Shown here: positions 7,801 to 63,990 of the stretch, piece after piece
Layout: each line of letters starts with the position of its first letter
How positions within the stretch are numbered: position 1 is the first letter of the stretch
Assembly: GCA_963930775.1 (NCBI GenBank)
Contig: OZ005699.1
Location: forward strand, 6,903,501-6,967,500
Length of the DNA: 64,000 nucleotides
Origin: Cliona cf. orientalis
Taxonomy: Eukaryota; Porifera; Demospongiae; Clionaida; Clionaidae
Direction of reading: 5' to 3'
Notes under the pieces: generated by a model
Databases searched by the model: none
What the model saw: the letters and a program-made list of their open reading frames with translations, nothing else
Told to the model about the DNA's origin: nothing
Made by a program: the position numbers and the translations under genes

Positions 7801-8465
7801 CATTCAATTTCAGTAAACCATTATATAAGTATATACTTCCTCCACATGATGCAGCATTACTGATGAAGATATTGTTTCCGGTGACTGTTAAATTTGATGC
7901 TGACATCATCAGTGCCGCACCATAATTAAATAATCCATGAACTCCAACAAATTTTGAATCTCTGATGGCTACTGAACTCTCGTGACTCATAACTGCACTA
8001 CAGCCAACCCCACCATCACCAATAACTGAAATATCTGACAATTGAACCAATTGTGATGTTCTGAATACTATACTAAAGGTAAAGTTATCTAGAAGAGTGA
8101 ATACAATCGAAGAAACTTCGATATTTGAACACTCATCCCATGTAATACTGACTAATGAATCAAGTAAAACATTAGGGACATCACTATCTGACAAACCTTG
8201 AAAGGTGTATATTCACAAAATTCAAACTGCTGTTCAGCATATGACTGCCAGGTTCAAAGTAAAAAATGGTGTCACATTTGAAATACATTTCTGGTTGATT
8301 TGCATACTCTTGGAGAGCGAGACAAGTGGAATGATCAGCAGTCTGAGAGCAATCAAGCGTCTCATTTGGAGTGACGTAATACTTTAAAGCGGCTATCTCA
8401 AGTTTTAATATGTCAGATGATGTCATCAAAAATGCCAGCAGCATAGGTAACCATTTCTGGACCAT
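4814..8465 (-). pseudogene. Beta-helix plus multi-pass membrane protein, three frameshifts
   Basis: Four reading frames on the minus strand together make one protein of a family common in sponges. Frame 1 (8465-8184) starts at a true ATG with a hydrophobic signal peptide and a 'YYVTPNETLDC' start. Frame 2 (to 6959) is a right-handed beta-helix region with repeats of the type 'NxA..GGAIxxxxxx', like chlamydial Pmp repeats. Frame 3 (to 5275) holds a Cys-rich module (CTCNRN, CPLDYC, CDFNRTGILCGQC) and about six membrane segments. Frame 4 (from about 5310 to 4814) adds two to three more membrane segments and a cytosolic tail ending in PTYD. Homologous reading passes from frame to frame near 8200, 6975 and 5310 with no usable GT-AG intron, so single-base-type indels are needed. 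Either this is a young pseudogene or the assembly has indel errors. If intact, it would be a cell-surface protein. Its function is not known to me. Confidence 0.75.
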
Positions 8466-32621: not shown

Positions 32622-35600
32622 TTACTGTTCGTCGCTATCAGATTCTGTGCCTTTTTTCTTACACTCAAACCACGAGGAGAGATCAGCGAGTTCAAAGGGC
32701 GCATCGGACCATTTGCGAATCGCTCGTGGTTGGCCATCACTCTCAAAAATAAACTGTTTGCATTTGAGAACTGGGAACTCCTTTCCTTTCGCTGGCCAGG
32801 TAGCCATGATCCCCCACTCAGAATCACATACAGCACAGTGTATCTTGTGGGTCTGTGCCATCTGCTCTGTCAGCTGACGAGGCGTTTTGTGAGGTTTCTT
32901 TTTAATCTTCTCTTTGAAACTCTCATCCGGAACAGCGTGGTGGAACGTCCCATCGATTAGGTACACGTCTGATCCAACACATGCAGGAGTTTTGCAATTC
33001 TTGCACATCATTCGGAAACTGCCGGCCTTGTGCTGAGGAGAAATCTGTTTGCGAACAATAATCTTCTGTTGGTGATGGGCAAGTATTGCCCTCTGTCGCC
33101 TTTCAATCTCCTGGATAAGAAGTTGGCCCTTAGGAAACCATTGCATACATTCCTCTACAAGCCGAAGTAGTTCGTCATTTTTAAACTCCTGCAGCTTCTT
33201 CTTGGAAGTGCTGGCAAGAATGGTAAATCCCTCACTCTGCTCTGCCCTAGCCCTTCCCTGAGTCTGCATCTTGGCAATTTCATTGGAAACGTGCTGGAAG
33301 CGTATGACTAAGTTGCACGCTGGGACATCCAGACCCTCCTCGGCTACAGAAGTGGCAATAAGAAGATTGCAGCGACTCTCTCGAAAGCTGGTCATAACTT
33401 CATTCTGCTCTACTTGAGTCATTCCAGTACCAGTCTCCCTGGTGTGACCTGTGATAAGGCGTGGTTTGATGGCATATTGCTGTGATTCGGGTAGATTTTC
33501 TATCCACTTGCAGATCGACAAGGCATGGTTTCTTGTTCGAACAAAGATGATTCCTTTTGAACTTGGATTGCTTGAAAACGCAATGACAAGTTTCTCCTTT
33601 GCTGCATTCAGAAGCGGGTTTTCAATTGGTTCTAGTGTCCTCAATGTGGTCAGCAACTGGTGAAGGCCTACCTTCAGAGAAATCTCTTTGGGAGTTGCTT
33701 GACTATCATCAGCAGGCAAGCCCGTATACTCTGCCAGGATGCTAATAGCATCATCACGTGTCAGATCCATGTACATGTTGAGCGCCTTCGAGTAGCGTCT
33801 CAACAGACGCAAGGTGCTGATCTGATCTCGGTATTCCGGCTTAAGGCTGATCTCAAGCTGCTGCTTCAACTGCTGCACTATCGTTTCATACTCCCGTGAC
33901 CACTTTGGAAAAGAGCACTTCAAATTGGGTACGGTTTGCTCGTACTTCCTCATTTCGTGGACAATGGTTTGGATGAAAGGCTCAGTTTCACTGCGGCTTG
34001 GAGGGATTTCGAGTGTGAAAGATGGCTTATTGGTATTGCAGTGGAGCTCTTCTTGGTGTTCTTCGACCATTTTCATGCCAGATGTGGCGTCCATCAGTGC
34101 ACAGAGATTGATTAGATTATTTATCTTTTCTTCGAGGTATGGATTATCCCCTGCTCCTGGTGAAGCAGTTAGACCCATTATCTGAGGCACCTTCAATGGA
34201 TCAGCCACCTTATCTTTGAGATACCTCAGCATGATGTTAGCTTGAGGAGAGCTGTTCTTGGTGTGATGACACTCATCTATCACGATGAGACTAATCATAT
34301 CAAAGGTCACCTTTCCTCCCTTGATGGCATCTAGAATCTTTCCTGCCGTACAGACGATGATATCATGGTGGGGGAGGAGATCAAAAATGGCCGGACCACC
34401 GTCATCTATGCTGCAGTCAACATGAGCTCCTGGGATGAATTTCTTTAGCTCTATCTTTTGCTGCTCAGCTAGGGGTTTGGTGTTGACGATGAACACCACC
34501 TTAGGTTTTTTGTCCGCATGCTGATTTTTCTGTAGATGGTTGGATATGACTAATGCAGCGACAAGGGTCTTGCCACTTCCCATGGGAGCTACCACGATGT
34601 AATTTTCACCATTGATTCCAGGTTTGGCAAGCTCCTTCTGGTACTCACGGATTTGCTTTCCTGGACCCAATTTCAGTGTGTAATCAAACGAAACAGGAAT
34701 GGACTCGGTCTCCGATATTTCAATGTCGTGTGATCCTTCTAGCTCACATGAATCTTGTGGTTCCAGTGAATCTTTTTCTGACTTGCCTGTTGGTGAGGGC
34801 TCTTTATCAGTGGTAGTGAGAGAGATTGTATCTACACTACTTGGTGTGGCATCATTGCTAGGACTGATAGTAGTCTCATCTGCAGCTTGGAGACTTGAAG
34901 TGGAATCGACAGAATTCTCATAAACTGAACTTGTCCCATCGCTTTGTAGAGCTAGTATCTTGTTGTCAAGTGGTTGGACAGAAGCAATAATCGGAGAACT
35001 CTCATTGGTCGAGGGTAATTGAGAGGTGGAGGTGGTAGGTTGACTAGGATTTGCTGAGTCAGATAATGCTGCATAGGTGGGATAGAGGTGTGTGTACTAT
35101 TATAGCTAGTGCATACATAACACATATGGATAAAGGGACACACCCCCAGTAATTTATATTGTATACTCACATAACAAAATTCATGGCTTCACTGGTACTA
35201 GGAATGATTATGCTACTCTACAGGAATGGTCAGTCTCAGGGAAATTTTGAGTCCCATACTATTTCAGATAAAACATTAGTCAGCTCTTTGTGCAGGGGTA
35301 TTTCTGGTTATCCCACCCTTTGGCTTTCATATTGTTCCTAAGAGAGTGCTGACAATAATAATGGCTAATTACCTCTCACAAATAAACAGTAAATCTTCTA
35401 TTAAATTTTTAGTATATTTCTGGCACAAGGAGCCGTTCTCAACACAAATTAGGGTAATGGGTTAGTGGTTGTTATGGTCATGCTATAAATCATAAATTAG
35501 CTACATGTATGTATTCACCAGCATGATAATACTGCAATTAGCCAGGGGAATTCCCTGGAAGTCCCCCCCCCCCTGCCAAGCAGTAAACAATGAGGATGGG

Positions 35601-37175
35601 ATCTCAGGTACACTAAGGCATGGAAGTACAATTTCGCGTACATCGGCCGTTTCCGCTCATGAATATCATTTGCATCTAATTAGCATATCATTAACGAGCA
35701 TGCACGTGCTCGCTCTCCATATGTTTTGTATTGAGCGTTGAGGCAGCTAGCAGCCAAGAAGCTACTGATCGATTTCCGGAGCAGAAGACGATAGATTATG
35801 GCTGTAGAAAGCGACTCATCAGAATGTTAGATGCCTCTGCTTCTTAGATTCATCTGGGAGAAGTGGATCTGATCGCCTATAGGTGAGTGGAAACAAGAAA
35901 TACATGAACTAGCAGTGGATTTTGGTGCTTGTTGAGCACACAAGTCGACACCTCACTCAAGAACAAGCCTTTTATCCATCCTCCTAGATAGTTTGAGATA
36001 CTCTAGCATCTATTTAACTACCTTACGAAGTTAGGAGAGAAACTAAGGTCATCTTCTGCTCCGGAATTCGCGATTTTTGTTTATAAATATCGTGTGCTGT
36101 TTTTGGCTGCCACGCCCACAGAACTGGTTGCTATGGTAACCAATTTGGTCTTAAATTAGATTAAGGTACCAACAATCAAAGAACCAAGTGTGATATACAC
36201 ATCTCAAAGACTTTTCCAAATAAAGTGAGTTTAGTATCACCATATTTTTGACACAAAATTGCATGTCCCATGCCTTAATGCACCTGAGATATCATGATTC
36301 ATAATACATATACCAGCCATAGTTGATCAATAGCAACTCGTGCCAAAACACGACTTTGTACATAATACTGTACTAGTCTCATCATTGCCAGCTGCATACA
36401 CCTATGGGAGAGGGTAATTTACTGAATATGAGAATGCAACATGTGCAAATGCTGCCATGGTGCATACTATATTATAGTGGGTAACTTTGGTGTTGGTGAA
36501 GTTTCCTGCTATACAGTATGCCCAACTATCATCTCAATAGATGCATATAATATTATGATGTTTAACGCACAACTTTGCACCCATACATGACTATGGTAAC
36601 ACAACTGCAATAGACTGGATTCACCCTGTAGGGGACATTGGAACAACTCCGTGTAGGTGTATACGTATTATAGTGGTATAAAGGACTGACAATGCAAGAC
36701 TAGTACACATACCAGTTGTGTTTACATAAGTAATTCAATCTACATGTAGCATACCGGAAACAATCAGCTGAGCCTCAATTTGAGCAGCAACAGGCTCCAG
36801 TCCCTCCATGGTCTTGATGGCCTCGATGAGCACAGACCAGGTCACTGGCTGTTCTGACAGTGCGGAGCGTAGCCACAGCTTCATGGTATCATGAAAGCAC
36901 ATACTGCTGTCACCGCTCCGGCTCGCTCGGATTTCGTCCAGCCGTTTTCCATCGTCTTCATCGGCCAGACCCAGCGCCGTGCCTAACTCCTCCCATCTCT
37001 TCATCAAATGCGGCTTCACGAGACGCTGCAGCTCGCTTGGTTTCGGCTTTGACTCAAGACCTGCATGAATGAATGTGTAAATAAATCGAACTATGATGGT
37101 AAGCGATGTTTTTGTCGCGTATTTGTAGCCACCCACGCATCAATTTTAATCGAACATACTTTCCATGAGGCTCAT
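32622..37175 (-). CDS. RIG-I-like helicase A with N-terminal Death domain
   Basis: Three exons: 37160-37175 (ATG plus five codons), 36755-37060 and 32622-35068, giving about 922 residues. Both introns are phase 1 and GT-AG. Exon 2 encodes a Death domain (LQRLVKPHLMKRWEELGTAL...). A Ser/Thr-rich linker of about 130 residues follows. The helicase has motif I APMGSGKT (about 268-275), motif II DECH (about 372-375), LTASPG, an insert domain, motif V SVAEEGLDVP and motif VI QTQGRARA. The last ~120 residues are a RIG-I-type C-terminal domain with paired CxxC (CKNC and CAVC), which in RIG-I bind zinc and the 5' end of RNA. It is therefore a presumed cytosolic sensor of foreign double-stranded RNA. 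Met replaces the usual Thr in motif I. Gene B (53.2 kb) is the close paralog, in the opposite orientation. I have not assigned it to RIG-I versus MDA5. Confidence 0.9.
35069..36754 (-). other. Intron 2 of RIG-I-like A
   Basis: The intron separates the Death exon from the linker/helicase exon. It contains a 686-bp element at 35603-36288 and otherwise AT-rich DNA. Donor G|GTATGC and acceptor ATGCAG fit, and both are phase 1. Confidence 0.7.
35603..36288. mobile_element. MITE-like element in RIG-I-like A intron
   Basis: The ends 'ctcaggtacactaaggcatg' and 'catgccttaatgcacctgag' are inverted. The first ~290 bp are repeated in inverse orientation at 38855-39135 (phrases 'gtttccgctca.aaatatcat' and 'gaggcagctagcag'). 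No transposase is seen. Confidence 0.7.
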
Positions 37176-37958
37176 ATTAATGGATTTTCAAAGAAATATA
37201 ATAAGTCGATTAATTAAACCATTATCTTTCAGATGGACTGGAAACGCACACGCCGCCCTATTACAAAGTACACATTTCCATTTCTACCATCCTCGTTAAG
37301 GGTAAAAATATCGCGAGCGGTAAGAAGCTACAAAGGCTGCTTGGAAACACCAATGGTGGTCGACCTGCATGACAACAGCTAGAGTCAGCGTCTGCGAGGG
37401 CATCTACAGTAAACCATAGTTGTAGTATAATGTGCTGAAAGCCATTTTTGTGGTGAGTGTGCTTCTAAGTGCACTCTATGAGTGAAAATGCTCAGTATAG
37501 CTGTGTTTCACATCCTGTCAACACTTTGTGCTGGATTAGCTCATAAAGTAAAGCTCTCACGAGGTTCTATACAGCCCCAATCTTGCTTTACTGGATAAGC
37601 AGTATTCTTTTGAGCTGGAAGGTACTTTAGGAGCACAAGACTCCCGAAGTGTAAAATTAACTTGACGGAGATAGACACTTTTTGTGCTAGGTAATCTCAC
37701 AAACTAAAACAGATATGAACATTATTCAAATGCCAAAAGTAAGTTTACTCATGAATTGCTTCACTGGGTAAACAACATTTGGCGCGCTAACATTATGTAA
37801 GAGTTTTCTGCGAGCCTTCATAGAAGTACTAGATGGCCATATTGACTGTCTTGGCACCCTAGTAAGAGGTCGTCAATGCAAGCAAAACTGGAGCACTTTC
37901 CAACACTGCGCGTGCGCGATAGTCCACTAGTGACTTCAGGGAAATCCAAGACTTGCAA

Positions 37959-38356: not shown

Positions 38357-38645
38357 TAGTTGTGTTGGCTCTCTCGGATTTTGTCCAGCTGTTTTCCATC
38401 GTCTTCGTCGGCCAGACCCAGTGCCATGCCTAACTCCTCCCACCTCTTTGCCAAGTGCAGCTTCACGAGATGCTGCAGCTCGCTTGGTTTCGGCTTTGAC
38501 TCAAGACCTGCATGACCTGCATGAATGAATGTGCAAATAAAATCTAACTATGATGCCACTACACAGTGCATTACAGTACGCAATGTTTTGTTGTGTTTAC
38601 AGGCTCCCATACATCGATTTAGTTTACCTTCCATGAGGCTCATAG
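38357..38645 (-). pseudogene. Truncated 5' end of a RIG-I-like gene (Death exon)
   Basis: The minus-strand sequence copies the start of RIG-I-like gene A. The micro-exon ATG AGC CTC ATG GAA G is at 38630-38645 with a GT donor. The first half of the Death exon is at 38357-38507 (GLESKPKPSELQHLVKLHLA). It ends abruptly at 38357 where GNAT-like sequence begins. The upstream flank also matches that of gene A, so this was a tandem duplication truncated later. It could still provide a promoter. Confidence 0.8.
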
Positions 38646-38779
38646 TGTATTTTTGAAGAAATATTATAAGTCAATTAAATAAACAAACGATGGATACTCA
38701 GGTAAGATAGCTCCATTCTGTGGGTTGTTTTATAGATGCAGATTGGGCGCAGCTGGGCTCCGCCCCAAAGCTACTGACT

Positions 38780-39555: not shown

Positions 39556-42500
39556 TTAATCACTTACTTCAAAGATCAAATGGATATCTCCACATGAGAG
39601 CCTCAGTACGGATGTTGCTCTGAACTGGTCTTGCTGCTCTTTAGTCAATGACTTCCTGAAAATTTGTTGAGATATGTGCCTTGGGATGCTGAAGGTGATC
39701 TCCACACATCCCTCTTGAATTCCTATGATCAACAATACAGAAGGCTTAATCCCTAGGATTTCACATATTCTGAATTCCAAATCAGTTATTGCTGTCCAAG
39801 TGGGGTTTTCCTTATCCAGTTTAATCAGCATTTTGTCTCGCATTACATCGATAGAGCTTGATGACATAAGCTCCTCTGGTACTTCCGATACTTTCCGTTT
39901 GTTGAAAAATGTTTCTAACTGTTTTTGATACTCTTTCACTATTGCTTGATCCGATTCATCTCCAAAGTGATCCACAATACTATAGAAGATTTCGCACTTC
40001 AGAAAGCTCCAATATTTTCGCAGAACTTGAAATACTTGGTCGACAGAGGCAACAGAATTTAATTTTTCTTGATCAGCATCAGAAAAAAGGGACGTCGGTT
40101 CGCAATTGTGATTCTCATAAATATCCTCATAATCTGAAAGAACATGGGCCACGATTTTCTGAGGAGAAACTCTCTTGCTTACTGATTCTCGAACTTCAAA
40201 TTGCAATGTAATGAACTTTTTCTTAAGTTCCATAAGATCCTGCTTGATTAAGAATTGAAGATCTTTTATCTTGTCGCTGTGTAACACGGATTGTGATTTT
40301 GCAGACAATCCATTACTGACAACCTCTGTATGCAAGCCAGGAGAATACTAAGTAAATTTAGGACTGGTATAATGGTGCCATCCAAAAATTAATTTTATGA
40401 GGCCTCAGCGAGAAGATTTAATGTATCATACTGGTATTAATCAAATTCAACGTAAAATTAGCATTTTACGAATTCTAAGAACGTGTATTAATATAATTAT
40501 GGAGTGATTGACGACCTTATTTACCAGAAACATGCACATTTTTCAAATTGAAATTATTCTTTTCTATACATGTACGTTATATTAGATCAAGTACGGTATG
40601 ATTGTATTAGACATTTGCCACTACTGTGTAAGCATCTGAATCAATAACTAGCAGGCAAATAGTTTTTTAATATGCATGCACATGTACATTTAACTAATGT
40701 AACAGTTGTAGACAGCACTATACTATTGAATTTACATCTATAGATTATCAATGGGATAGTCCCAATAGGCACTGCGGTGTATGGTGGCTTCAACCTTTGA
40801 AGCCACATGAGCCACTACACCATGACCATACAGCCACTATATGTAACAGTACCAGTTGTTAAGCTTTTTAATTACCTTGCATGCATGCGCAAGAGGTAAA
40901 ACAATAGGTTTGTCTGTCATCTGTTGTCTGCACAAAAATCACTGATCTGGAGATCTAAGTATCTGAGCGATTCGTAAGTACAGCATATCTGTCGATATCA
41001 TTGAAAAACTGGCTTCATTGTGCTTCAAATTGTTTAGTAAGGCCCCATGAACGTCGTAAATACTTCATTTTGTTGACCACACCTATCAATATTACCCACC
41101 ATGTGCTTTCTGCTCATGCATACATCCTGGCAGATTATGCAGGCAAAGGTCGTCAACAGGCTCAAGCATGCTGCTGTAGCTAGCTTGCATGGTATGGAGC
41201 TCTCTGACATTGTCGATTCAACGCTGCAGCACGCAGGGTATGTGCTCTATAGAGCCCTATAGTTTTAATTCGAGGTGACACCATGCAAAGTAGCAATGGC
41301 AGTACTACAGGTCACTAAATTTGAGGGGGTAGGGTTTCACTGTACACTTCCAAGCTAGCTTTAGTAGATACATCAGATTTTATATTATATACTAACCAGT
41401 TTGCGTGGATATGCTCATATAGGGATCACCTTGTTCTTTGCCCTACATAAAATAAAGTATGTAAATATGCACTGGGATCACATAAATGCTACTTACATGT
41501 AACTTATGTTTTGATATTCCATTAGCTGTTGGCTTAGACACAGATCGAGTTTGAAAATGAGATTGGTCGTGAGCTTGTTCACCTGAGTACGTACGTATAG
41601 CATGCCATACATTTAAGTACAATACAGTCCAACCTTGATTATCCGAACTCTTGATTATCCAAACTCGAGATGCAAAGAAAATGCAGGGTCAAAGTACACA
41701 CCATGACCACATGACCGGCTTGTGCATGTGCAGTAAACCTACGTCGCGTAGTTGCCACGCGAGAACCAGCTACTGCGCTGCTATCAAATCTAGTTTTAAC
41801 GCTCAAAGAAGTAAAAGAAAAGCAAGGCAAGCATCCTATCAATCGAAGATGGGATTAAAATCGTCAAAATGCTCGATAAATCTGTCATATAATACATTTT
41901 TGCATGCATGAGTGAGCTCGTGGGTGTGGCTTAGGCGTGATCAACATTATCCAAACTTCTTGCTGATCCGAACGATTTGAAATTTGCCCTTGGCCAAAGG
42001 GGTTCAGATAATCAAGGTTGGACTGTAATCATATGCATACTCATCTTCAGATCCCATCAATGGTGTATAAACACACTTAATTAGAGGTAGCTCTATTCAG
42101 GGGAAGCAAAGAAACTTCAAAAGTGATTTAGAGCATGTTAGAGTTACCAAGTCTTGCAAAATTAAATGCACATGACAGCTAGCAATAATAATAAGTCTTA
42201 GCTTATTTTGGTGATTCTTTTACTTGCTTTACCAATGTAAGTTTATAAATACCGTATACTACTACAGCTCTCTAGAGCCCAAAACCCTTGCATGGCATTT
42301 GTTACACTAGCCTCGTACCCAGGCCCTTATAGAGGAGGAGAAAGGGCCTGGTACACACTGCATGCATGTGCATGCGCCGGAGGACCCCAGAAAAATGTGG
42401 GGTAATCGGATACTATCGTATATACTCTCTGATTATCGTCCATAGAACAATACCTCATGCAGAACCCGCAAACGATCACTATGGTAATGCAACCGGTCGC

Positions 42501-45016
42501 TATGGAGACCCCGCACATGAGCGTGCAGTGTGTACCAGGCCCTTTCTCCTCCTCCTCTTAAAGGGCCTGGGAACGAGGCTATTGTTGCACAAGCTGGCAA
42601 CGATAACTAGCTATATTGATTTCCTGAGTACCCACATGCTTCTCAACCTCAAATTAATGAATTTGAGGGGTGTTGTACCAATTTGGGGGTAGAGGCATCA
42701 ATTCCTTATCTCATCTCTGGTCTGGTGACTAGACTATCCTGTGTATGCTCGTGTTTGTGCTTTTCTGGTAAGCTATCTTTCACTAGTCTCAATGCCATCT
42801 CATCTGCTGATTCTGATGCTCTCTGTTGCTGCACTGCTATTGCTATTCTAGTGGAATAAACTGGAAGATTTGTTAAGAATGAACACACACACAAGCTTCC
42901 TCACCAGCTGCTGGGAAGACTTTCAACTGAAAATCAGCTAGCCAGACTTCAGGCACGTGCTTTTATAGAGTGCAGTACAATGTATGCTGTAGTAAGATTT
43001 GCGTGTGAATAGAGACGAGTGCATTGGGTGTGGCTTGCAGGAAAATCAAAAAGCTAAGCAGTTACTTCACTGACCATTGGCAGGCAGGCAGTTACTGTAG
43101 CTTTACAAGAGTTATAGCTGGAACTACTTGTTTTGTATCTTGAAAGAAGTCTACTGTTGTTCATTCTGTTCATCCAAAAGCTACCAGGGTGCATGGAAGA
43201 ATGGATCTATGGTGGAAGGTAGTAGTCCTGAGCAAATGTCGCCAGAACTGGAGAACAAAGCGCTTTTAGCAAAATCCACACAATACATGTATCTGAAACA
43301 CCATCAAGAATCTTATAACACCATGCTTGAGACTCGTAAACAAGGTATGTACCAGACAGACAGATAGACACACACACAGAGAGAACGATTGCCATAACCC
43401 TGTGGTGCATGCATGCACCGAGGGTTAATTATACTTGAATGTAAGGCTTCTATTTTCTTCCTGGCTCTTGAGACTCGGTTTTAAAACGAAACAGGCGTTT
43501 ATTTATATGCAGTACTGTACTGACTCTTGGCCGCATGGCACACGCAGTGCCACGCGGTATATAATAAATCGGTATAATAATACAGCAGCCTCTTTAGTAC
43601 CTCCTCTATAGCCTTTATCTTGCAGAAATGCGTTTCGTTTCTGGGCCATTGTGTTGATAAAGCATTTGCAGAAGGTCTGCACTTGTTTACGCATACAATC
43701 GCACGAGTGTGACTACTACGATCGATATCACACCCCCAGTCAATAGCTAGCGAGATAGGTGCCATGCCCCCTCAGAGGCACCCAGTGTTTATTTTCTTGA
43801 GACACTGGTGAACCCCCGGCTTCTAAACAAGACTGGCTTTAATTAAATTTTGAGGGAGGCTTCAATCTTCTGTTCAAGCATACACAGTATTATTGTCAAG
43901 TGTGTGGAACGTATATGGTGCACATGTATCAGCGTGAATCATACGTTCACAAGGAACTATAAACACTCTCATCAAAAATATGGATACAACTGACTTTCAT
44001 TAACCCTTACTACACATGTGCGAGGGTTACGGTAGTCATTCTGTGTGTGAGTGAGTGAGTGAGTGAGTGAGTGATCGCGTGTGTCTCTTACTGCGCTAGC
44101 TGCTACATACCTGTTCTATACGTTGAAAAAAAAAAGATGCCACTAGGCTTTTCGTGGTAGATACAATGTATGCATTGTGTGCCATGGATTTCGTTGAAAA
44201 TGCTTTGTTCAAAAGTTCTGGCGACATTTTCTGACCACCACGGCCTTCTTCGCTTCTTGTCGAGCTCTCGCTCAATGAAAGAGTCAGTAGCCGCTTTATT
44301 TCAAGAAGATTAGTATGTAGCTCAAATGATAGTTCTTGTAACTCAACTGACTCATCACTAGTCAAAGTACGCTATCAACTATGCTTCTTGGCTTTATTTT
44401 GCACTAGATCTGCTGATCTGACATGCACGTGGTACTATTACGTAATACCGTGCAATCAGTAATGCATTCTTGTGGACATAGTTACTACTGCTACATGTAT
44501 ACAAGTTCATCTCCTTTGACTGAAGCATCGAAACTCGAACTTTTCACATAATATTATAACAGCAACAGAGTGTTTCAGGCTTAGCTTGTAAATTTGCAAC
44601 ATGTAGCTAGACTAGTCACTATCGCAATAAATCTCACAGCGCCGAGGGTTTAATTTAGCACCAATGGTATTCATTCATCAGATGCTTACCATTAACACTC
44701 ATGGTGGCTACAGATAATGTCAATGAATTCAGTGGAACTCTGCAATATTTAGACCTCAGCTCAACGATAAGATTTCCATGACATCCAATCCGTTCTAGAG
44801 CTTCAATTATCTTCTCCCATGATGCTTCCTCATTATTCAGCCAGTAGGCAAGTGTTGCATTCAACTTCCTGGGAGTATCGTGACACTCTTCATCGATTTT
44901 TTTGAGCGCTTGTTGTGGTACATGTAATTGGGTTCCCAGCTGGTGCCAGTCCACTCCACGCAGGACAACCACTAAATCACACAATGCTGGTGCACCACAC
45001 AATGTTGGTTGAATCC
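39556..45016 (-). CDS. Death-domain protein with sponge-type C-terminal domain
   Basis: Two supported minus-strand exons: 44690-45016 and 39556-40325. Both begin in phase 1 and the first ends in phase 1, so they join cleanly. The first encodes a Death domain (LVVVLRGVDWHQLGTQLHVP, ATLAYWLNNEEASWEKIIEA). The second encodes a domain of about 250 residues (LKKKFITLQFEVRESV...YWSFLKCEIFYSIVDHFG...VEITFSIPRH...LSCGDIHLIFE). I know this domain as a recurrent but uncharacterised module of sponge proteins, often with Death or NACHT domains. The final GAA|GTAAGT could also be a donor to an unseen further exon. The 5' exon with the start codon is not identified. It is presumably a cytosolic signalling adaptor. 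Confidence 0.65.
41625..42025. mobile_element. pogo/Tigger-like non-autonomous transposon
   Basis: The ends CAGTCCAACCTTGATTATCC and the inverted copy ending ggttggactg are flanked by TA on both sides, the pattern of pogo/Tigger mariner relatives. Inside, a broken frame reads 'VLTLKEVKEKQGKHP', like the start of the Tigger DNA-binding domain. It lies in the intron of the Death gene at 39.6-45.0 kb. Confidence 0.75.
42308..42581. mobile_element. Mutator-like MITE
   Basis: The ends TAGCCTCGTACCCAGGCCC and its inverse are followed inward by 'agaaagggcctgg..acac'. The flanks are ttgttacac (42299-42307) and ttgttgcac (42582-42590), a 9-bp duplication with one mismatch. Confidence 0.8.
42706..42860 (-). 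CDS. Candidate extra exon of the Death gene
   Basis: After a good acceptor (cttccag at 42861), 155 bases open in phase 1 encode VYSTRIAIAVQQQRASESAD... and end in a stop at 42706. It would join the Death exon at 44690 in frame and make a short isoform. Codon use looks protein-like, but no homolog is recognised. It may be spurious. Confidence 0.3.
43128..43430 (+). repeat. Dispersed repeat copy with 'ccgagggtta' end
   Basis: The phrases 'ctggagaacaaagcgctttt' and 'caaaatccacac' and the terminal 'gcaccgagggttaatt' link it to the elements at 44001-44652 and 61727-62300, in inverted orientation. The open frame across it is a property of the repeat. Confidence 0.55.
44001..44652. mobile_element. 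DNA element with 'taaccct/agggtta' ends, copy 1
   Basis: The left end 'taacccttactac.catgtgcgagggttacggtag' and the right end 'cagcgccgagggttta' bracket about 650 bp. This is closely similar to 61727-62300 in the same orientation. Both contain a 'gtgagtgagtgag' run and a minus-strand frame with 'SEEGRGGQKMSPELLNKAFS'. It ends 37 bp from the donor of the Death exon. Confidence 0.7.
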
Positions 45017-45189
45017 CTTATAAGTAATAATATAAAATAAAAATAAATGTTTGATGATGACTCGGGAGTAGCTAGCTAGGTGGATAGCTGCAACCATGCA
45101 GGCATGCAGCCTGGATCATAGCTTCCAGAAAGAATGATAATTATTCATAATAATTATAAAAATGGATAATGCTTGCTAAATTTTATCAT

Positions 45190-53182: not shown

Positions 53183-56100
53183 ATGGACCAGGAAGGTGCG
53201 CAATATATGAACTTTTATGTGTGCATTTGTCATTGATCAGATACCGCATATGTCTTCGATGAACACTATTTAATGCGGTATAATAATATAAATACGGCGT
53301 TTAAAATACTTTAGGTCTTGAGTCCAAGCCGAAGATGAGCAAACTCCAGCGTCTCGTGAAGCCGCACTTGGCGAAGAGGTGGGAGGAGTTGGGCACAGCG
53401 CTGGGTCTGGCTGACGAAGACGATGGAGAAGAGCTGGACAAAATCCGAGCGAGCCGGAGCGGGGACAGCAGCATGTGCTTTAACGACACCATGAAGATTT
53501 GGCTACGCTCCGCATCGTCGGCGTCGGAACAGCCAGTGACCTGGGCCACACTCATCGAGGCGATCAAAAGCATCGAGGGACTGGAGCCTGTTGCAGCTCA
53601 GATTGAGGCTCAGCTGATGACTTCCCGTAAGTTTATAAATAATATCAGGTATTAGCTATAATGATGTTTTGCACGAAACATGCTAGTACCAAAAAGTCTA
53701 CAAATTTAATATTATGTCTCGATCAGCAAGATAAATGGTGCATTTTGGGGCTTCCACTTTACATTAATTTTAATACAAAGCCCATGCATTAATGTAATGC
53801 CCACGTGCTTGAAGACATGTATTTTGGATGGTGGCACTGTAGGGTCCCTATGGATGTGTGAGCTGATAGTGAGGTGCGTTCAAGGCAGTGTTCCAACCTA
53901 TGTCCAGCAATAGAAGTGGCAACATGACCCTTCCTTTGTTTACTTGCATGGGAAGGGGGAGTACCAGGGAATTTCCCCTCAGTACTGCTGTACCTTGCAT
54001 GTGGTTAGCATGAAGTAGCAGTTACAACCACAAATTACCAACTTCAATCAAACAGATGTGCCTGCTCATGGTCACCAATTCCAGAAATGCACACAAAACA
54101 ATAGTCAATAATTGTTTTTGAGACACAATAACTGATTCTGGTCAGCACTTTCTTTATACTTGGGGTATAATGGGATGATCTCTCCAGAAATTTCCCAGTT
54201 GCTCACTACTGTTTTTGTCTGGAATTTGTATGCCACTAAAACTTTCCCAGGGAGTCACCTGTACTGAACATAGCATAATCATAGTAAGTAACCATGAAAC
54301 CATGAATCTCATTATAACATAGTACACACACCTTTATTTCTCGTTTTGCAGAGTCATCATCTTGTCCAACTGAGTTTGCAAGTGCCAGTAAACCCAGTAA
54401 CCCCGCCCCTCAACTACCTCCAACTATTGAGACCCCTCCAATCACTGCTTTTGCAGTCCAACCACCTGGTGAGACACTGCCTCTACCAAATGATGTAACT
54501 ACTTCGATTAGTGACAATTCCATGGTTTCCGCTCCAAATTTACCGGGTGACGAGACTGCTGCCCTTTCTAGTGACGATTTCACTTCAAGCAGTCAAGATA
54601 GTCTCTCTTCCCCTGGCTCTGACAAAGAGACTTCACCCTCACCACCAGGAGAGCCAGAAGATTCACAGGTTCAAGAAAGTTCACAGGAACCAGAAAATTT
54701 ACACGAAACCGAGATGATGGAGTGTGAGTCCATTCCTGCTTCATTTGATTACACACTGAAGTTGGATCCAGGAAAGCAAATCCGTGAGTACCAGAGGGAG
54801 CTTGCCAAGCCTGGCATCAACGGTGAAAATTACATCGTGGTAGCTCCAACAGGAAGTGGTAAGACCCTCGTGGCTGCATTGGTCATATCCGATCACCTGG
54901 ACAAAAATCAGCACGAGGACGACAAGGCGAAAGTGGTGTTTATCGTCAACACCAAGCCCCTAGCTGAACAGCAGAAAAAAGAGCTAGAAAAGTTTATTCC
55001 AGGAGCTCAAGTTGGCTGTAGCATGGGAGATGGTGGTCCCTCCATTTCTGATCTTCTTCCACACAATAACATCATTGTTTGTACGGCTGGGAAACTCCTA
55101 GATGCCATCAAAGATAGAAAAGTGACCTTTGAAAAGATTAGTCTCATCGTGATAGATGAGTGTCATCACACCAAGAAGAGCTCCCCTCAAGCCAACGTCA
55201 TGCTGAGGTATCTTCAATGCAAGAAAAAAGATCCATCGAAAGTGCCTCAGGTAATGGGTCTGACTGCTTCACCAGGAGCGGGGGACAATCCTCATCTCGA
55301 TAGAAAGATAACCATCGATCATCTAGTCAACCTCTGCGCACTGATGGATGCCACGTCTGGCATCAAAATGGTCGAACAACACCAGGAGGAGCTTGACTGC
55401 AACACCAATAAGCCAGCTTTCACACTCGACATTTCTCCAAGTCGCAGCGAAGATGAGCCATTTATTCAGACCATTGCTAGGGAAATGAGAGAGTACGAGA
55501 AAACTGTGCCCAGCTTTAAGTGCTCTTTTCCAAAGTGGGCACAGGAGTATGAAACGATAGTGCAGCAGTTGAAGCAGCCGCTTGAACTGAGCATCGAATC
55601 TGAATATAGGGATCAGATCAGCACCTTGCGTCTATTGAGATGCTACTCGCAGGCACTTAACATTTACATGGATCTGACACATGATGATGCTATTAGTGTG
55701 TTAGAGGAGTACAAGGGTTTGCCTGCTGACGACAGCCAAGCAACTCCAACTGAAATCAAGTTAAAGAGAAGCCTTCGCTACCTACTAACCAACTTGAGGA
55801 AGCTAGATCCAGTTGAGAATCCACTTCTAAATGCAGCCAAGGAAAAACTTGTCGATGCTTTCTCAAACAAACCAAAATCAAAAGGAATCTTATTTGTTCG
55901 AACAAAAAAGCATGCTGTGTCAATCTGCAAGTGGATCAGCAATCTGCCTGAAGCTCGTCAATTCGCCATCAAACCACGTGTTATCACCGGCCATACCAGA
56001 GAGACTGGTTCTGGAATGACTCAAGTAGAACAGGAGGAAGTTATGACCAGCTTTCGAGAGAGCAGCTGCAATCTTCTTGTTGCTACTTCAGTAGCCGAGG

Positions 56101-56816
56101 AAGGTTTAGATGTCCCATCGTGCAACTTAGTCATACGCTACCAGCACGTTTCCAATGAAATTGCCAAGACGCAGACTCAGGGAAGGGCTAGGGCAGAGGA
56201 GAGTGAGGGATTTACAATTCTCCCCAGCAATTCCAAGAAGAAGCTACAGGAATTGAAAAATGACGAACTACTTCGGCTTGTAGAGGAATGTATGCAATGG
56301 TTTCCTAAGGGCGAACATCTCACCCGTGACATTGATGAATGTCAGCAAGCCATACTTACCCATCACCGACAGAAAACCTCCGCCCGCAGGGAGAAATGTG
56401 CTCAGAATAGTGCCAGTGATTTCCAGATGATGTGCAAGAATTGCAAGGCTCCTGCATGTGGTGGATCAGACGTGTACCTGATCGATGGGACATTTCACCA
56501 CGCTGTTCCGGATGAGGATTTCAAGAAGAAGTTTAAAACCAAGCCACATAAACCACGTCATCAGTTGGCTGAGCAGATGGCACCCACTGACAAGATATAC
56601 TGTGCCAAGTGTGACTCTGAGTGGGGGATTATGGCTACGTGGCCGGCAAAGAGTCAACAATTCCCAGTCGTCAAATGCAAGCAATTTATTTTTGAGAGCA
56701 ACGGCCAACCCCAATGGATTCGCAAGTGGTCCAATGTGCCTTTTCAACTCTCCAACCTTTCTGAATGGTTTGAGAGTCAGAAAAAGAGTGATAATTCCGA
56801 TAGCGAGGAACAATAA
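53183..56816 (+). CDS. RIG-I-like helicase B with N-terminal Death domain
   Basis: Three exons: 53183-53195 (ATG GAC CAG GAA G), 53315-53626 and 54352-56816, giving about 929 residues. Introns are phase 1 and GT-AG. Exon 2 is a Death domain (LQRLVKPHLAKRWEELGTAL...TWATLIEAIKSIEG). Exon 3 starts with a Ser/Thr/Pro-rich linker of about 125 residues. The SF2 helicase follows: motif I APTGSGKT (about 273-280), motif II DECH (about 377-380), LTASPGAG, SVAEEGLDVPSCNLVIRYQH and QTQGRARA. The last ~120 residues form the RIG-I C-terminal domain with CKNC and CAKC zinc ligands. All helicase motifs are intact, so an active RNA-dependent ATPase is expected. It differs from paralog A by a canonical Thr in motif I. 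The downstream start of kelch-Death B is only about 480 bp away on the same strand. Confidence 0.93.
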
Positions 56817-57291: not shown

Positions 57292-60200
57292 ATGGTGAGT
57301 TAGATTCAATTTATGCTACTTTGGATACTGTTATGATGAATTTATGTATAGGAGAAGGCTACTGGATCTTTTCTTGACCCATGTACGTCATTGGATTGCC
57401 GAGATTTCCCAGCATTGCCCATCTGCTCTTCACATCGTAAACTTCAGGCTGTCTTTGTTCCTGATAAAAGAGGTGGTAGAGTCTATGTGGCACTAGCACA
57501 TGTACAGGAGCGTAATCTGTGGTTTTGCTCTCTCGGCAACAATCCTATACAATGGCATAGTGAACTAGATCTACCTGTTGATCGTACTGAACTGTTGAAT
57601 TTTCCTGCCAGCCTTCTGTTTACTGACTATACTCTGACTGTGTATGGATCAGACTTAGTGGTCATCGGAGGAATTCTTATGGGTCAACCAAGTAGTGGAG
57701 TATGGTCAATGAATTCAATGCAAAATGAATGGAAAGGTTTGCCCTCAATGCTGACAGCTCGTTCGTCTGTCATAGCCGTAGGCTACGGAGATCACCTAGT
57801 GGCTGCTGGTGGAAAATGTGGCAACAAGATATGCCATGAGGTTGAAGTATTCAATGGAGATAAATGGTCAAAAATAAAGCCTTTTGCGTATCCCAAGTCC
57901 CCGAATGAGCTAACATCTGTCCTTCATGCCGACAATAAGTGGTACATTATGGAGAGCAATGGGTGTGCTGTTCGAGCAACCTACAGTGCACCAATTGATG
58001 ATATCATTTCCGGTTCGTCAACTTATGAGTGGAAAGTCCATTCTGCCGAATCATGTCCTCCTTGTGGAATTTTACCACCAATTTCCTTTGATGGTCAACT
58101 CATTGTAGTAGGAAATAATGGTGACAATGAAAAGCCAAAGCTTTATTTCTGTTCTCCAGACTTCGGTTCCTGGGTGAGCTTTGAGAAAGCTCCCTACATT
58201 GGCCAGTATTGCAATATAGTAGGGATTGTAAGCGTATCTGACCAAAAAGCGCTGATGCTGATTTATAAAGGAGCGAAAAAGTGTACTATCAAAATGATCA
58301 CTTATAAAGGTAATCATTACTACTGTATTGTTCTGAGTAGGTGGCATGCATGGGTGCTTATAACTAGCTATTTCAGCTCGCATGGGTGCTATAATTATAA
58401 CTGGAATACGTACATATGTATAAAATATGCTAGCTACATTAATTACCCTATGGAATGTGAGCGCTTGCCCAGAACATGCTATATGTGATTGTATGCATGC
58501 AGGGTCTATATCAAGTCAGAGTCAAGTAGCGTTGACTTCTGAAATATTTTACCACATCCCTAATCGCTGAATAGTAAAATATCAAGTGCATAATTATACA
58601 ATCTACATTAGATGCCTCAGTCGCAACGATGAGCTCAATAGAGTGATGCTCAACCTGGATACCGTAATGTCTGGTTAATGAGCGCATGCGCTTATCACTC
58701 TCGGTGGTAAGGAAACATGCGCCTATTAGATGATGTGCGCTTAATAGAGAGTGAAGTTTTGGCCCCCGCCCACTGCCAGCATGTTCGAGCGCTCAATGAC
58801 AAAGCTAGCAAGTTATGAACACAGTGATTCTTGGACTAAGCTCTGTAATAGTTCATGGGAGTATGATCGGAAGCCATCGCTGGAAGAAAACCGCGTTGAA
58901 AAATAGCCGATTTCTTTGGCGCTCGCTTCGGTCAAGGCAGAGGTCAAGAGTCCGAACCTGTCTCAGTGGAACATCGAAGTGTTGAGTATAGCCGATCTCA
59001 TGCAGCTGGCTATCCAAAAATAGGTTGCTAAATTAGTTCTAGCCTTGTAGAGCATGGAACACTCTTGGTTGAACGATGACTAACTATTACTTCCGTCTTT
59101 ATTGGACGCATGCACTTATTAGACGATACTTAACAACAAGAAGGAAGCATGTGTTTATTAAAAAATATGCGCTTAATAAGCATGTGCGCTTATTAACCAG
59201 ACTTTACGGTACGACAAGTCTTGATGCTTCAATTGCAGATTTGGATGAATATGCTATAGCATTGGCTAGCTCGTTATAATATTATTATGCATGACTAAAT
59301 TTGACCGGCTTATGACATTGTATACTCTGCGCTCCTGACTCTGCACATGATCGATCTCTATACATATATTATATACGTATACTTTTATGGACTACTATAC
59401 CATGCATGCATTGTGCATGATAGTATTGCAATTGGTTTTGCCCATACTTCCTGTACCCAATTCAATTGAATTATAGAGTCTACTATTCTGCATTATAATC
59501 CAATATAATAATTCATGAGGAAGTCTATGAGGTAATTGAGGGCTTCAACAGAGCCTTTGAGACTTGAAAATCATACATGACATTGTAAAGAGTCCTTCAT
59601 TATTAACAGATACGTAACAGTAACTATAAATGTATGACACTACATACCTGGAAGTAAATAATCACTTTTGGCATTAACTAAAGCGTGCACGATGGTGGGC
59701 ACATACAAGGCTATGGTTATAATCATACCTGCAATGATAGAAAACCTAGAGCCATTAGCTCCATTGAGCCCACTGTCACAGTCATTGATAGTGAAGTCAA
59801 TTTAACGAGCACACTGCATAGATCGAGGTTCATAATGGTCAAATGAGAAGCATGTATCTACAAGTGTTGATTCTGAATAAGGATACTAATAAGTAAAAGG
59901 ATTGAGACCCTATAGATACACTGTGCCTTTAGGTAATTGAACGCCTATAGCCAGCGAGCAGACATGAATGCATGTGTATATAATAAGATCATCCTTTTGC
60001 ATTACTCATAATAATTAGCTATGCCATCATTGATTGTGTTCATGTGATACACTTAGTCTCTCTACCAAAGGCACGTGTTTTTTTATGATCACTATAATTA
60101 TGTATGAATTGAAAAATAATTGTCACCAATGAGGGCAGGTGGTGAAATTAGTAGAAATTTTCTCCTGGTAAAAATATCTGTATTTGTCAATTGCAGTATA

Positions 60201-63200
60201 ATATATATTCATTGTTGCATGTATGCATGATAATATTATTATTATGATTTACAGGTGATTCACGACATTGTATACTTGATCAGTATTTCTCATGGTCAGC
60301 AATGATCAAGCTTGAGTATTGTCACAAAATCCAAGTGCTTTCCCAGCTAACACCAGCTAGGCTTCGACAGCTAAAACGGACAGCAATATTCAACCTGAAG
60401 CCTTTTAACGATGAAGAGAAACGAAGGGGTACCAATGATCCTGCAGTATTGATTTACATTGATAGCTGGTTACAAGATGAGAGTGCTGGTTGCCCTCCAA
60501 CATGGAGAAATTTTTTGATGATTTTAAGGAATGTTGGAATGGTAGAAATTGCTGCAGGGATACTATCTAAGTTTCCTATAATGATCACAGCTGGTAAGTA
60601 GCTAGCCACTGTCATGATTATAATGCTCTGAGTCTCTGGCTAAATTAAATATAAAAGCAGTATATTTCCCCCTGGATTTTTCTTTAGAGTATATATACTG
60701 ACATTAAATTTAATTTGGTGATCTCAAGGTATTAGACAAGTATATATTATTGTATAACAATATTTTAGCTATGTTTACCAACTTAGATTTAATTACCTCA
60801 TTTTCAAGTGGGGGACTTAAGGCTGTCCAAAAGTATATTAATAGCTACAAGGAGTGCATGCAACATACATGTAATATTATGGACATAATAACAATTATTA
60901 TTGAATTTCTGTACCTACTCTAAGCTGAAACGATTATACATGAGCTCACTTTCATTTAACAGGTAGCAGTACTGTATCTGAAGAATTACTGAAACTGCAG
61001 GAGTCATTGACTTCTACCTGCAGAAGCTCAGAGGTACTAAATAATAGTTATAGACACTGTTTAGGAGGTTTCTACGTGATTTAGAAGACCGAAGGGCTGT
61101 ATGTAGAATCCCGAGCGAAGGGAGGGTTCTACTGAGCCCTGAGGTCTTCTAAATCACGTACAAACCGACTAAACAGTGTCTTAACTACTTTAGATCCTAG
61201 CAATAATGCCCAAAAGCTTTGTATAATATAAACAAATGCCTAGCAACAAACTAGCTATATATATATATAGGCAAAAAAATTTTACCAGGTTTTTTATGGA
61301 GCTTACAAGGTTTTTATGAAGGAAAGATGCTGCAGTTCAACCAATCAAATCACTGTATTTGTTACAAATAGGATCTAAGTAAAGAAAGACAAAAGATCAT
61401 TCAACCGGTGATTAATAGCAGTTTGACTGAGAGCTATTCTGTTGCCTGGGCTGTAAGGAATATGAAACATGTGGCTAGGATGAGAAACGAAAGCCTGTTG
61501 CAAGAGAATAAGGCACTCCGTAAAAAGGTCGATGAATTGCAAAAGAAAGGTAACTATTATTAATAATAATAATTATTATTATGCACGGCTGTATACTTAT
61601 GCACTTATAGCACAATAATAATTAATTTATTTATATAGATCAAGAACAGAGAAAGATAGAACAGGAAATGGGTATGATATTGTATGCGACTGTGAGTCTT
61701 GCCATCCACAATTGCAGCATAATAATAACCCTCGGCGCACGTGCGGGGTTACGGTAGTCGTTCTGTATGTGAGTGAGTGAGTGAGTGTGTATGTGTGTCT
61801 GTTATTGTGCTAGCTGCTACATATTACCTGTTTTATAAATTGAAAACAAGGTGCCATTAGGCTTTTTGTGGTAGATACAAATGCATGTAACTATGTATGT
61901 ATATTGTGTGGATTTCGTTGAAAATACTTTGTTCAAAAGCTTTGGCGACATTTTCTGACCACCACGGCCTTCTTCGCTTCTAGATCTTATCAAGCTCTCG
62001 CTCGATGAAAGAGACAGTAGCCGCTTCATTTCAAGAAGATTAGTGTGTAGCTCAAGTGACAGTTCTTATAACTCGATTGACTCATCACTAGGCTATCAAG
62101 TACGCTTCTTGGCTTTATTTTGCACTAGATCTACTGATCTGGCATGCACATGGTACTATTACGTAATACTGTGCAATCAGTAATGAATTCTTGTATTTGT
62201 GGTTATAGTTACTCTCTAACAGCAACAAAGTGTTGCAGGCTTAGCTTGCAAATTTGCAACATGTAGACTACTGCAATAAATCTCATAGCGCCGAGGGTTT
62301 AGCACCATGCAATAGTGTTCATTGTATAAACTGCTATAATGGACTAAATTTAACAATGATTTACAATCACTGTGATCTGATTGGTCACTTAGAGGTCTCT
62401 GTGTCTCATAGAGACCTACAAGTATATAATCAAGGGCAAACTGAAAGGTGCACAGTGCAACAGTAGCCTAGTCCTCAGGTCAACTACCACGGTACCGTTA
62501 GAGTTGCTATAGTATTCTAAATCAGTTACTAGATAGATGTACCTCATCCAATGGTTTCTACACTTAAGAGACCCTCAGGTCCTTGGTATAGCACCCTCGC
62601 TTCGCTTGGAATACTACAGCCTCGGGCCTTTGAGACTCTTAAAATGTATAGAGACCTTGGACTTGGTCGTTAACTATTATTTAGTAACTTATTCGATATA
62701 TAGCTTTGAAGGAAGAGTTCATGACAGTGGAAGAACACCTAAGCAGATTGAAGACAACACTAGACCGCATCAATCGTCAGGGTCAGGATTATGGGGATGA
62801 CTTTAAGATTGGCGTGAGTCAGTGCATTAAGACATGTGATATTATAAGGAGGAAATTTGCTGATGAAAGGAAACAACTAACTCAACGTATACAGTGTCTG
62901 GAGGACCAACTTAAATCACATGGTAGCTAACTATATTAAGTACCATAGAGATAATAATATATTATTATAGCTAACTACCATGGCCGGCAATAATACCAGT
63001 TGCAATGGTAGCTACCTGTAGCTATGTAGCAAGCTAATGAAGCTAAAATTATATTTGTAGCTAGCTGCTATGGAGCATCAGAAAGGATAATAATAGTAAT
63101 TTTATAACACTTAGTACCTGGCATATACCGTAGGTCGGGTCAGTTTAATTGCGAGTATCTAGATATTAATTGCAAATTGCGAGTTTTTCTACGTTTCGCA

Positions 63201-63990
63201 ATTAATAGATTCGCAAACATAAATGTGCATGTATACTACAGTACTACAGTACGGTACAGGGTCGTCCATCGCAGTTATTGGATTCACAATTTGACCTGAC
63301 TTGACTGGAACGCAATTATTTAACTATACGCAATTAAAACCCGTCCTTCAGTATTGGCATGTACGTAATACCAGCACTCCCCACGCCAATTATCGGCACC
63401 TAGTTTATGATGTATACGGACATCGCTGAAGCGTTTACGGACCTGAAACTTTCAATAGCCATATTGCACACCAAGAAAAATAAATAGGAAGAAAAGGACG
63501 ATATCACTAGCAAGAATGCGTGGCAAAGTAGCTCTATGTCCTTAAAATTAATATTGTGTAGCTAGCTAGCCACTTGTATGGGTCAATACTATAATATTAT
63601 TATACCTATCAGTCTGAGCTACAGCCATTATTATTCATCATTGCAGATTCCAGTAAAAAAAGTGACAGTTCTAATAGACTAACTGAACAGCATATTCCAC
63701 TCCTACTTCAAGAGCTGAACCAACATGCTACCAAGTGGCGGGAGATTGGAACTTGTTTACGATTCCATCCTGGTGAACTAAACAATATCCAAGCACGTCC
63801 AAATCTGACATCAGAAGCACCAAAGAGCTGGCTAGGGGCCTTGCTAGAGGAATGGGTCCAGTGGGCTCCAAGAGACCATCGACGGAGCTCTGGCTTTGCC
63901 ACTGTTGAAGCCTTGATGGAGGCACTTAGAAAAGCTAAACTAGCAGCAACTGCTCACGACTTAAACTTGCTACTATCAGCTGAGAACTAG
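57292..63990 (+). CDS. Kelch-propeller/Death-domain protein B
   Basis: Eight exons: 57292-57294 (ATG alone), 57352-58309, 60255-60593, 60963-61033, 61372-61549, 61639-61671, 62704-62922 and 63647-63990 (TAG stop), giving about 714 residues. All junctions are GT-AG and phases chain exactly. The propeller exon has typical kelch strands (LVVIGGILMG, MLTARSSVIAVGYGDHLVAA, EVEVFNGDKWSKI). Exon 3 is a Death-fold-like module (PPTWRNFLMILRNVGMVEIA). Exons 4-7 encode Lys/Glu/Gln-rich helices that look like a coiled coil. Exon 8 is a clear Death domain (LLQELNQHATKWREIGTCLR, LNNIQA, LLEEWVQWAPRD). This is probably a cytosolic oligomeric adaptor or sensor. Compared with paralog A it has extra coiled-coil exons. 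It shares strand and proximity with RIG-I-like B, but a common transcript is not suggested. Confidence 0.88.
58660..59210. mobile_element. MITE in intron 2 of kelch-Death B
   Basis: The ends 'taccgtaatgtctggttaat' and 'attaaccagactttacggta' are inverted, with repeated 'gcgcttatta' units near both ends. It is about 550 bp, TA-flanked and has no transposase. Confidence 0.8.
59239..59279 (+). CDS. Possible alternative last exon of kelch-Death B
   Basis: The acceptor 'cttcaattgcag' is followed by 41 bases that join in phase 1 to the propeller exon at 58309 and encode DLDEYAIALASSL, then a stop. The paralog has a counterpart at 19632-19702 with the same AIALASSL-stop. It would yield a propeller-only isoform. 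No AATAAA is obvious. Confidence 0.4.
61050..61192. mobile_element. Short MITE in kelch-Death B intron
   Basis: The left 'tagacactgtttaggaggtt', followed by 'cgtgatttagaagacc', is inverted at the right end ('ggtcttctaaatcacgta', then 'ctaaacagtgtctta'). It begins 17 bp after the exon at 60963-61033. Confidence 0.75.
61727..62300. mobile_element. DNA element with 'taaccct/agggtta' ends, copy 2
   Basis: TAACCCTCGGCGC and its inverse gcgccgagggtt bracket about 570 bp. This is highly similar to 44001-44652 in the same orientation. It lies 55 bp after the 61639-61671 exon, so both copies sit close to exons of Death-domain genes. Confidence 0.78.
63126..63353. mobile_element. MITE, 'aattgcg' family, copy 2
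   Basis: TACCGTAGGTCGGGTCAGTT is inverted at the right end (aaacccgtccttcagta). It belongs to the family of 50984-51200 and lies in the last intron of kelch-Death B. Confidence 0.75.

What the first reader, a model, noticed from the sequence alone, without database searches (positions are those of the whole stretch)
53183..56816. RIG-I-like RNA sensors with a Death domain in place of CARDs
Both complete RIG-I-like genes (32622-37175 and 53183-56816) have a splice-supported Death domain joined by a Ser/Thr-rich linker to a full helicase and a RIG-I C-terminal domain. Vertebrate RIG-I and MDA5 use tandem CARDs to reach MAVS. A Death domain implies a different downstream partner, and so an independent wiring of RNA sensing in an early animal lineage. 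I cannot say from memory whether this exact architecture has been published for this species.
Basis: partly seen in the sequence, partly recalled or inferred. Interest (0 to 1): 0.9.

Follow-up and report, generated by a model that had tools for sequence, protein, structure and literature searches.

The report
Death-domain RIG-I-like RNA sensors
Two genes in this animal DNA encode RIG-I-type virus-RNA sensors that carry a Death domain where vertebrate sensors carry CARD domains; the basic design is already reported for a sponge, but relatives in the same genome with two Death domains in a row look like a new variation.

Summary
Gene B (53183-56816, +, 929 aa) and gene A (37175-32622, -, 922 aa) each encode a Death exon, long linker, RIG-I/MDA5-type helicase and RIG-I C-terminal domain, with GT-AG, in-frame junctions. 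The Death call rests on homology and fold: alone, A's exon matches no Pfam family and B's scores 13.6 bits (cut-off 22.6), but homologous exons of three paralogues pass the cut-off, and a model (pLDDT 87) matches FADD, RIPK1 and ankyrin Death domains best. Nine of ten RIG-I C-terminal-domain loci found in this genome carry this exon; five of 120 listed homologues carry it in one frame with the helicase.

The architecture is not new: two Amphimedon queenslandica RLRs with N-terminal Death are published ("A1 type", PMC8998645). Additional here: three paralogues whose in-frame models join two different Death exons in tandem, a Death counterpart of tandem CARDs, and a tenth RLR-like gene that lost helicase motifs I, II, III, V and VI but kept its C-terminal domain. 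No transcripts or partners were tested; the host's sponge identity is inferred.

The parts
53183..53195 (+). gene B exon 1 (start codon)
   Evidence: ATG plus GT donor at 53196; in-frame join
53315..53626 (+). gene B exon 2: Death domain, phase 1 at both ends
   Evidence: AF2 fold and PDB matches; weak Pfam Death 13.6 bits
54352..54785 (+). gene B exon 3, first part: linker up to the DEAD match; residues 109-253 are 41% Ser+Thr+Pro
54786..56189 (+). gene B helicase (Pfam DEAD to Helicase_C), motifs I-VI recognisable
   Evidence: Pfam, motif table, PDB alignments
56424..56759 (+). gene B RIG-I C-terminal domain with two CxxC pairs
   Evidence: PF11648, 82.6 bits; motif table
37160..37175 (-). 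gene A exon 1 (start codon)
36755..37060 (-). gene A exon 2: Death domain, phase 1 at both ends
   Evidence: 85% identical to gene B exon 2
32622..35068 (-). gene A exon 3: linker, helicase (about 34646-33249), RIG-I CTD (33014-32679)
38367..38684 (-). truncated copy of gene A's 5' end (exon-1-like start at 38643, intron, first half of the Death exon)
   Evidence: blastn 76% to 36920-37219; protein match 78% over 49 aa
39559..40347 (-). neighbouring ORF, weakly TRADD-N-like; not part of gene A's model
   Evidence: Pfam TRADD-like_N 15.4 bits, below cut-off 23.7; homologous to the N-terminal exon of the C13 RLR-like locus

Best explanation
Genes A and B are RIG-I-like receptors of the Death-N-terminal type. 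[quoted passage not shown] not tested here). This brings many Death domains, tethered by a long flexible linker, close together, so that they nucleate a helical Death assembly and recruit a Death-containing adaptor, in place of the CARD-CARD step to MAVS. The output would be caspase-type cell death and/or NF-kB/IRF transcription. The Death module sits on an exon that can be bounded by phase-1 introns on both sides in most of these genes, which would allow exon shuffling and could explain a second Death exon in three paralogues. Shown here: gene models, domains, paralogue set, selection. Inferred: RNA binding, assembly, partner, output.
For: In-frame GT-AG models. Helicase and CTD over Pfam cut-offs. 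Helicase motifs I-VI recognisable in 9 of 10 paralogues (gene A with M for T in motif I) and both CxxC pairs of the CTD in 10 of 10 (motif names recalled). Alignment to MDA5, LGP2 and RIG-I far above Dicer. Death fold nearest FADD, RIPK1, ankyrin and TRADD. Paralogous Death exons over the Pfam cut-off. Nine of 10 RLR loci carry the exon. The fusion lies in one continuous frame in 5 of 120 listed homologues (P0064, P0085, P0079, P0110, P0061; E 9.4e-22 to 1.4e-15; reversed-sequence control: best E 1.2), in two clades apart from A and B. Purifying selection on Death and helicase exons. None of the 49 CARD matches and none of the 65 DED matches listed for the genome lies at an RLR locus. IRF domain: 3 matches, one with a stop inside.
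Against: No transcript of this genome was available. A's and B's Death exons do not reach Pfam's cut-off; nor do the C1 and D exons. No adaptor was found: the best non-RLR Death matches (C8:5332698-5332961, E 7.6e-10; C10:7570096-7570314, E 1.2e-8) lie in genes whose architecture I could not resolve. C. elegans DRH-1 signals through CARDs that had not been annotated (PMC11260149, abstract and passages), so absence of a CARD profile match is weak evidence. A homologue search with gene B's N-terminal region alone found nothing at E<=0.001, and 115 of the 120 listed homologues show no such Death domain in frame.
Confidence: 0.8

Rival explanations
1. The Death exon belongs to a separate gene or an alternative transcript, and the working RLR is LGP2-like (helicase and CTD without signalling domain).
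For: No transcript evidence; a truncated extra Death exon lies upstream of gene A; one survey classed A. queenslandica proteins as LGP2-like (PMC8260672, passages), though its rule only asked for helicase and repressor domain.
Against: Exon order with in-frame junctions in A and B; exon present at 9 of 10 loci; 5 of 120 listed homologues encode the fusion in one frame.
Confidence: 0.08
2. The N-terminal domain is a divergent CARD and the pathway is the usual CARD-to-CARD one.
For: CARD and Death share one superfamily; DRH-1 shows CARDs can go unannotated (PMC11260149); the genome has 49 CARD matches.
Against: Pfam scans up to E 10 list Death for several of these exons and CARD for none; the leading structural rows are Death domains, although a family not listed there is not excluded.
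Confidence: 0.05
3. The proteins act mainly in RNA interference with Dicer, as reported for nematode RLRs, and the Death domain only multimerises or localises them.
For: Nematode RLRs assist Dicer (PMC8476169, passage).
Against: Nothing found here points to Dicer, but I did not look for it; a signalling-type domain under purifying selection suggests a protein partner.
Confidence: 0.07

Closest known systems
A1-type RLRs of Amphimedon queenslandica (N-terminal Death, DEXDc, HELICc, RD; PMC8998645)
   Same: Same domain order.
   Different: Ten CTD loci here against two genes reported there; this genome also has tandem-Death and degenerate-helicase relatives, which the passages and section I read do not describe (its supplements were not seen).
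Vertebrate MDA5 / RIG-I / LGP2
   Same: Full helicase and C-terminal domain.
   Different: Death domain in place of tandem CARDs; LGP2 has no N-terminal signalling domain.
Cnidarian C-type RLRs (one CARD; PMC8998645)
   Same: One N-terminal domain of the death-fold superfamily.
   Different: CARD rather than Death.
FADD / RIPK1 / TRADD Death domains
   Same: Among the closest solved folds, at about 13-18% identity.
   Different: Not attached to RNA sensors.

Membership tests
RIG-I-like receptor | DExD/H helicase with motifs I-VI | tested here: met
RIG-I-like receptor | RIG-I C-terminal domain with four zinc cysteines | tested here: met
   PF11648 82.6 and 81.4 bits; two CxxC pairs
RIG-I-like receptor | helicase insertion/pincer region (PF18119) | tested here: inconclusive
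   21.5 bits in B against cut-off 23.2, not listed for A; full-length alignment to MDA5 and LGP2 spans it
RIG-I-like receptor | dsRNA binding and RNA-dependent ATPase | not testable with these tools
   needs protein
RIG-I/MDA5 signalling subtype | tandem N-terminal CARDs recognisable by profile | tested here: not met
   no CARD listed; none of the 49 genomic CARD matches at an RLR locus
A1-type (Death) RLR of sponges | N-terminal Death domain | tested here: met
   homology to paralogues over the cut-off and fold; own Pfam score below cut-off
A1-type (Death) RLR of sponges | host is a sponge | tested here: inconclusive
   genome unnamed; the cytochrome oxidase search did not complete
CARD subfamily of the death-fold superfamily | CARD fold | tested here: inconclusive
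   no CARD among the structural rows, but absence from the list does not exclude it

The most novel reading that the evidence does not exclude
The host evolved tandem-Death RLRs: three paralogues (C11:353k, C11:357k, C12:6382k; one clade, SH-aLRT 100) join two different Death exons in tandem before helicase and CTD, a Death-based counterpart of the vertebrate 2CARD. Together with five genes in one cluster and one on C1 that show one such Death exon each, and an RLR-like gene that lost its catalytic helicase motifs, this would be a layered RNA-sensing network possibly older than MAVS, with the degenerate member acting as a decoy or regulator.
Probability: 0.5. Interest if true: 0.7.

Novelty: new member of a known kind. 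Interest (0 to 1): 0.45.

Why it matters
[quoted passage not shown]); against that, a review passage describes an oyster RIG-I that interacts with an oyster MAVS (PMC9505182). A genome with nine Death-type RLR loci, some single and some tandem, makes the question testable: find what the Death domain binds.

Tried and rejected
Partner hunt: searching the genome with gene B's Death exon (150 of 345 candidates scored) gives the cluster's Death exons and the truncated copy first; C8:5332698 and C10:7570096 then rank among the remaining RLR exons. Their surroundings showed no clear adaptor, so no partner is claimed. STING search: no match, but no control genome rang either, so uninformative. Homologue searches with only the N-terminal region of the tandem protein and of gene B found nothing at E<=0.001; gene callers that stop at introns may explain this. 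The model of the C13 N-terminal exon was poor (pLDDT 53.7) and was not searched. P0079 seemed to show an intron read through in frame where P0064 lacks it, but the alignment there is ambiguous, so P0064 is not claimed as a transcript. A first tandem gene model failed because of a one-base slip in the donor and was corrected. One search was a failed script. In one search segment L001 was dropped (read on the wrong strand, stops inside), so 7 of 8 control Death segments went into the profile; it was also trained on the RLR exons themselves, on the C11:357k first Death and on the 24443 ORF, so their high scores there prove nothing. The tree used 117 of 120 homologues (P0001 is gene B's own ORF; P0033 and P0038 are double helicases), quick method, no outgroup, midpoint root. 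For C, D, E and C1 I listed splice candidates but built no full models. My notes say that all motifs I-VI are lost in the C13 gene; that is too strong: Ib is kept and Ia and IV partly. NCBIfam gave only general helicase families below their cut-offs.

Full report
What is there. The window is part of an unnamed 217-Mb genome in 149 contigs (G000:C11:6903501-6967500). Gene B lies on the + strand at 53183-56816: exon 1 of 13 bases, exon 2 (53315-53626) and exon 3 (54352-56816), 929 aa. Gene A lies on the - strand: 37175-37160, 37060-36755, 35068-32622, 922 aa. Both recount as one open frame. In both, Pfam finds DEAD, Helicase_C and RIG-I_C-RD far over their cut-offs. Gene B's helicase and CTD align along their length with solved MDA5 (best E 2.5e-88), LGP2 (best 8.8e-86) and RIG-I (full-length chains 1.6e-78 to 1e-69); Dicer-related helicase follows at about 1e-48 and Dicers below that. 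The linker, residues 109-253 of B, is 41% Ser, Thr and Pro.

The family in this genome. Ten loci carry a RIG-I CTD. Five sit within about 76 kb on C11 (6.936-7.012 Mb; A, B and three more, here C, D, E), two on C11 near 0.354 and 0.358 Mb, and one each on C1, C12 and C13. Nine of ten have the same type of Death exon upstream within the stretches fetched; the C13 locus does not, and a genome-wide search lists none there. Of the 49 CARD matches and 65 DED matches listed, none lies at these loci. The last Death exon can be bounded by phase-1 introns on both sides in eight of the nine genes; in C11:353k the entry is phase 2 (for C, D, E and C1 these are candidate sites, not full models). dN/dS is 0.09-0.24 on the Death exon and 0.17-0.25 on helicase plus CTD in the four of ten pairs with usable dS.

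Beyond the window. Three genes, C11:353k (952 aa), C11:357k (985 aa) and C12:6382k (1005 aa), have ATG-to-stop in-frame models, every junction GT-AG, with two different Death exons followed by helicase and CTD. All three first Death domains pass the Pfam cut-off (27.8, 25.9, 26.8 bits), as do all three second ones. They form one clade (SH-aLRT 100). In C11:357k and C12 a spacer exon between the two Death exons can be skipped without losing frame. The C13 gene keeps an open frame, the CTD (60.3 bits) and its cysteines but has lost the helicase consensus at motifs I, II, III, V and VI, with Ib kept and Ia and IV partly kept. Upstream of it, joinable in frame though without an assigned start codon, lies an exon homologous to the window's ORF 39559-40347 (21.8% over 174 aa, E 1.8e-7), itself a sub-threshold TRADD-N match. 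TRADD-N domains fused to RLR-like receptors are described among cnidarians and brachiopods, and a large TRADD-N expansion for Amphimedon (PMC8195603, passages).

Elsewhere. Of 197 homologues at E<=0.001, 120 were listed. Five of these 120 carry the same Death domain in frame before the helicase (P0064, P0085, P0079, P0110, P0061): P0064 and P0079 in one clade, the other three in a second, both apart from the clade of A and B. The other 115 show none, as expected where a gene caller stops at an intron, but true absence is not excluded.

What is known. Section 6 of PMC8998645 states that A. [quoted passage not shown] passages add Death-type RLRs in lophotrochozoans and suggest that death plus helicase might be the ancient state. 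So the central claim of the finding is published for a sponge. Another survey classed A. queenslandica proteins as LGP2-like, by a rule that did not ask for Death (PMC8260672, passages). For tandem-Death RLRs, no title or abstract listed concerned them; none of the 10 papers listed holds 'tandem death domain', and the one listed with 'two death domains' is a poxvirus review that I did not open. A 2026 paper on a demosponge genome (Dysidea avara, 575 Mb, so not this genome) does not mention RLRs in its main text (PMC12909245). Most subscription papers and all supplements were out of reach.

How it likely works. By analogy with MDA5 and RIG-I, RNA-driven packing of helicases would concentrate Death domains and seed a helical Death assembly that recruits a Death adaptor. 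The genome holds at least 150 scored Death matches, 65 DED matches and three IRF matches, so parts for caspase or IRF outputs may exist. The partner is unknown. That the host is a sponge is inferred from the Death-domain expansion and this architecture, not measured.

Verdict. The finding is real and correctly read, with its main novelty already in print. What remains new, if transcripts confirm it, is the tandem-Death variant and the RLR relative with a degenerate helicase.

Noticed in passing
G000:C11:351131-354425 (L025 1332-4626); G000:C11:354796-358036 (L025); G000:C12:6379961-6383364 (L023 5462-8865): Three RLR genes whose complete in-frame models carry two different Death domains in tandem before helicase and CTD.
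   Followed up: yes
G000:C13:664398-667881 (-), L022: RLR paralogue with a degenerate helicase (motifs I, II, III, V, VI lost) but a RIG-I CTD with its cysteines, and a TRADD-N-like exon joinable in frame upstream.
   Followed up: partly
window 38367-38684 (-): Truncated duplicate of gene A's start, intron and half Death exon; looks like a broken partial duplication.
   Followed up: partly
window 39559-40347 (-): ORF with a sub-threshold TRADD-N match, homologous to the C13 N-terminal exon.
   Followed up: partly
L020 2577-3050 (+), upstream of the cluster's fifth RLR gene: Weak, partial Death-like ORF (E 1.7e-5 by my own profile); whether it belongs to that RLR gene is unresolved.
   Followed up: no
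window 24443-24868, 44658-45017, 60248-60598, 63595-63987: Further Death-like ORFs not belonging to the RLR models (24443-24868 scores 33.5 bits for Pfam Death; the others only by my own profile, the one at 60248 marginal).
   Followed up: no
window 17769-18911 and 57352-58485 (+): Two long ORFs that look like kelch-type beta-propellers (by eye; no profile search run).
   Followed up: no
window 4817-8212 (-): Long ORFs with repeat-like and membrane-like stretches (by eye); not identified.
   Followed up: no
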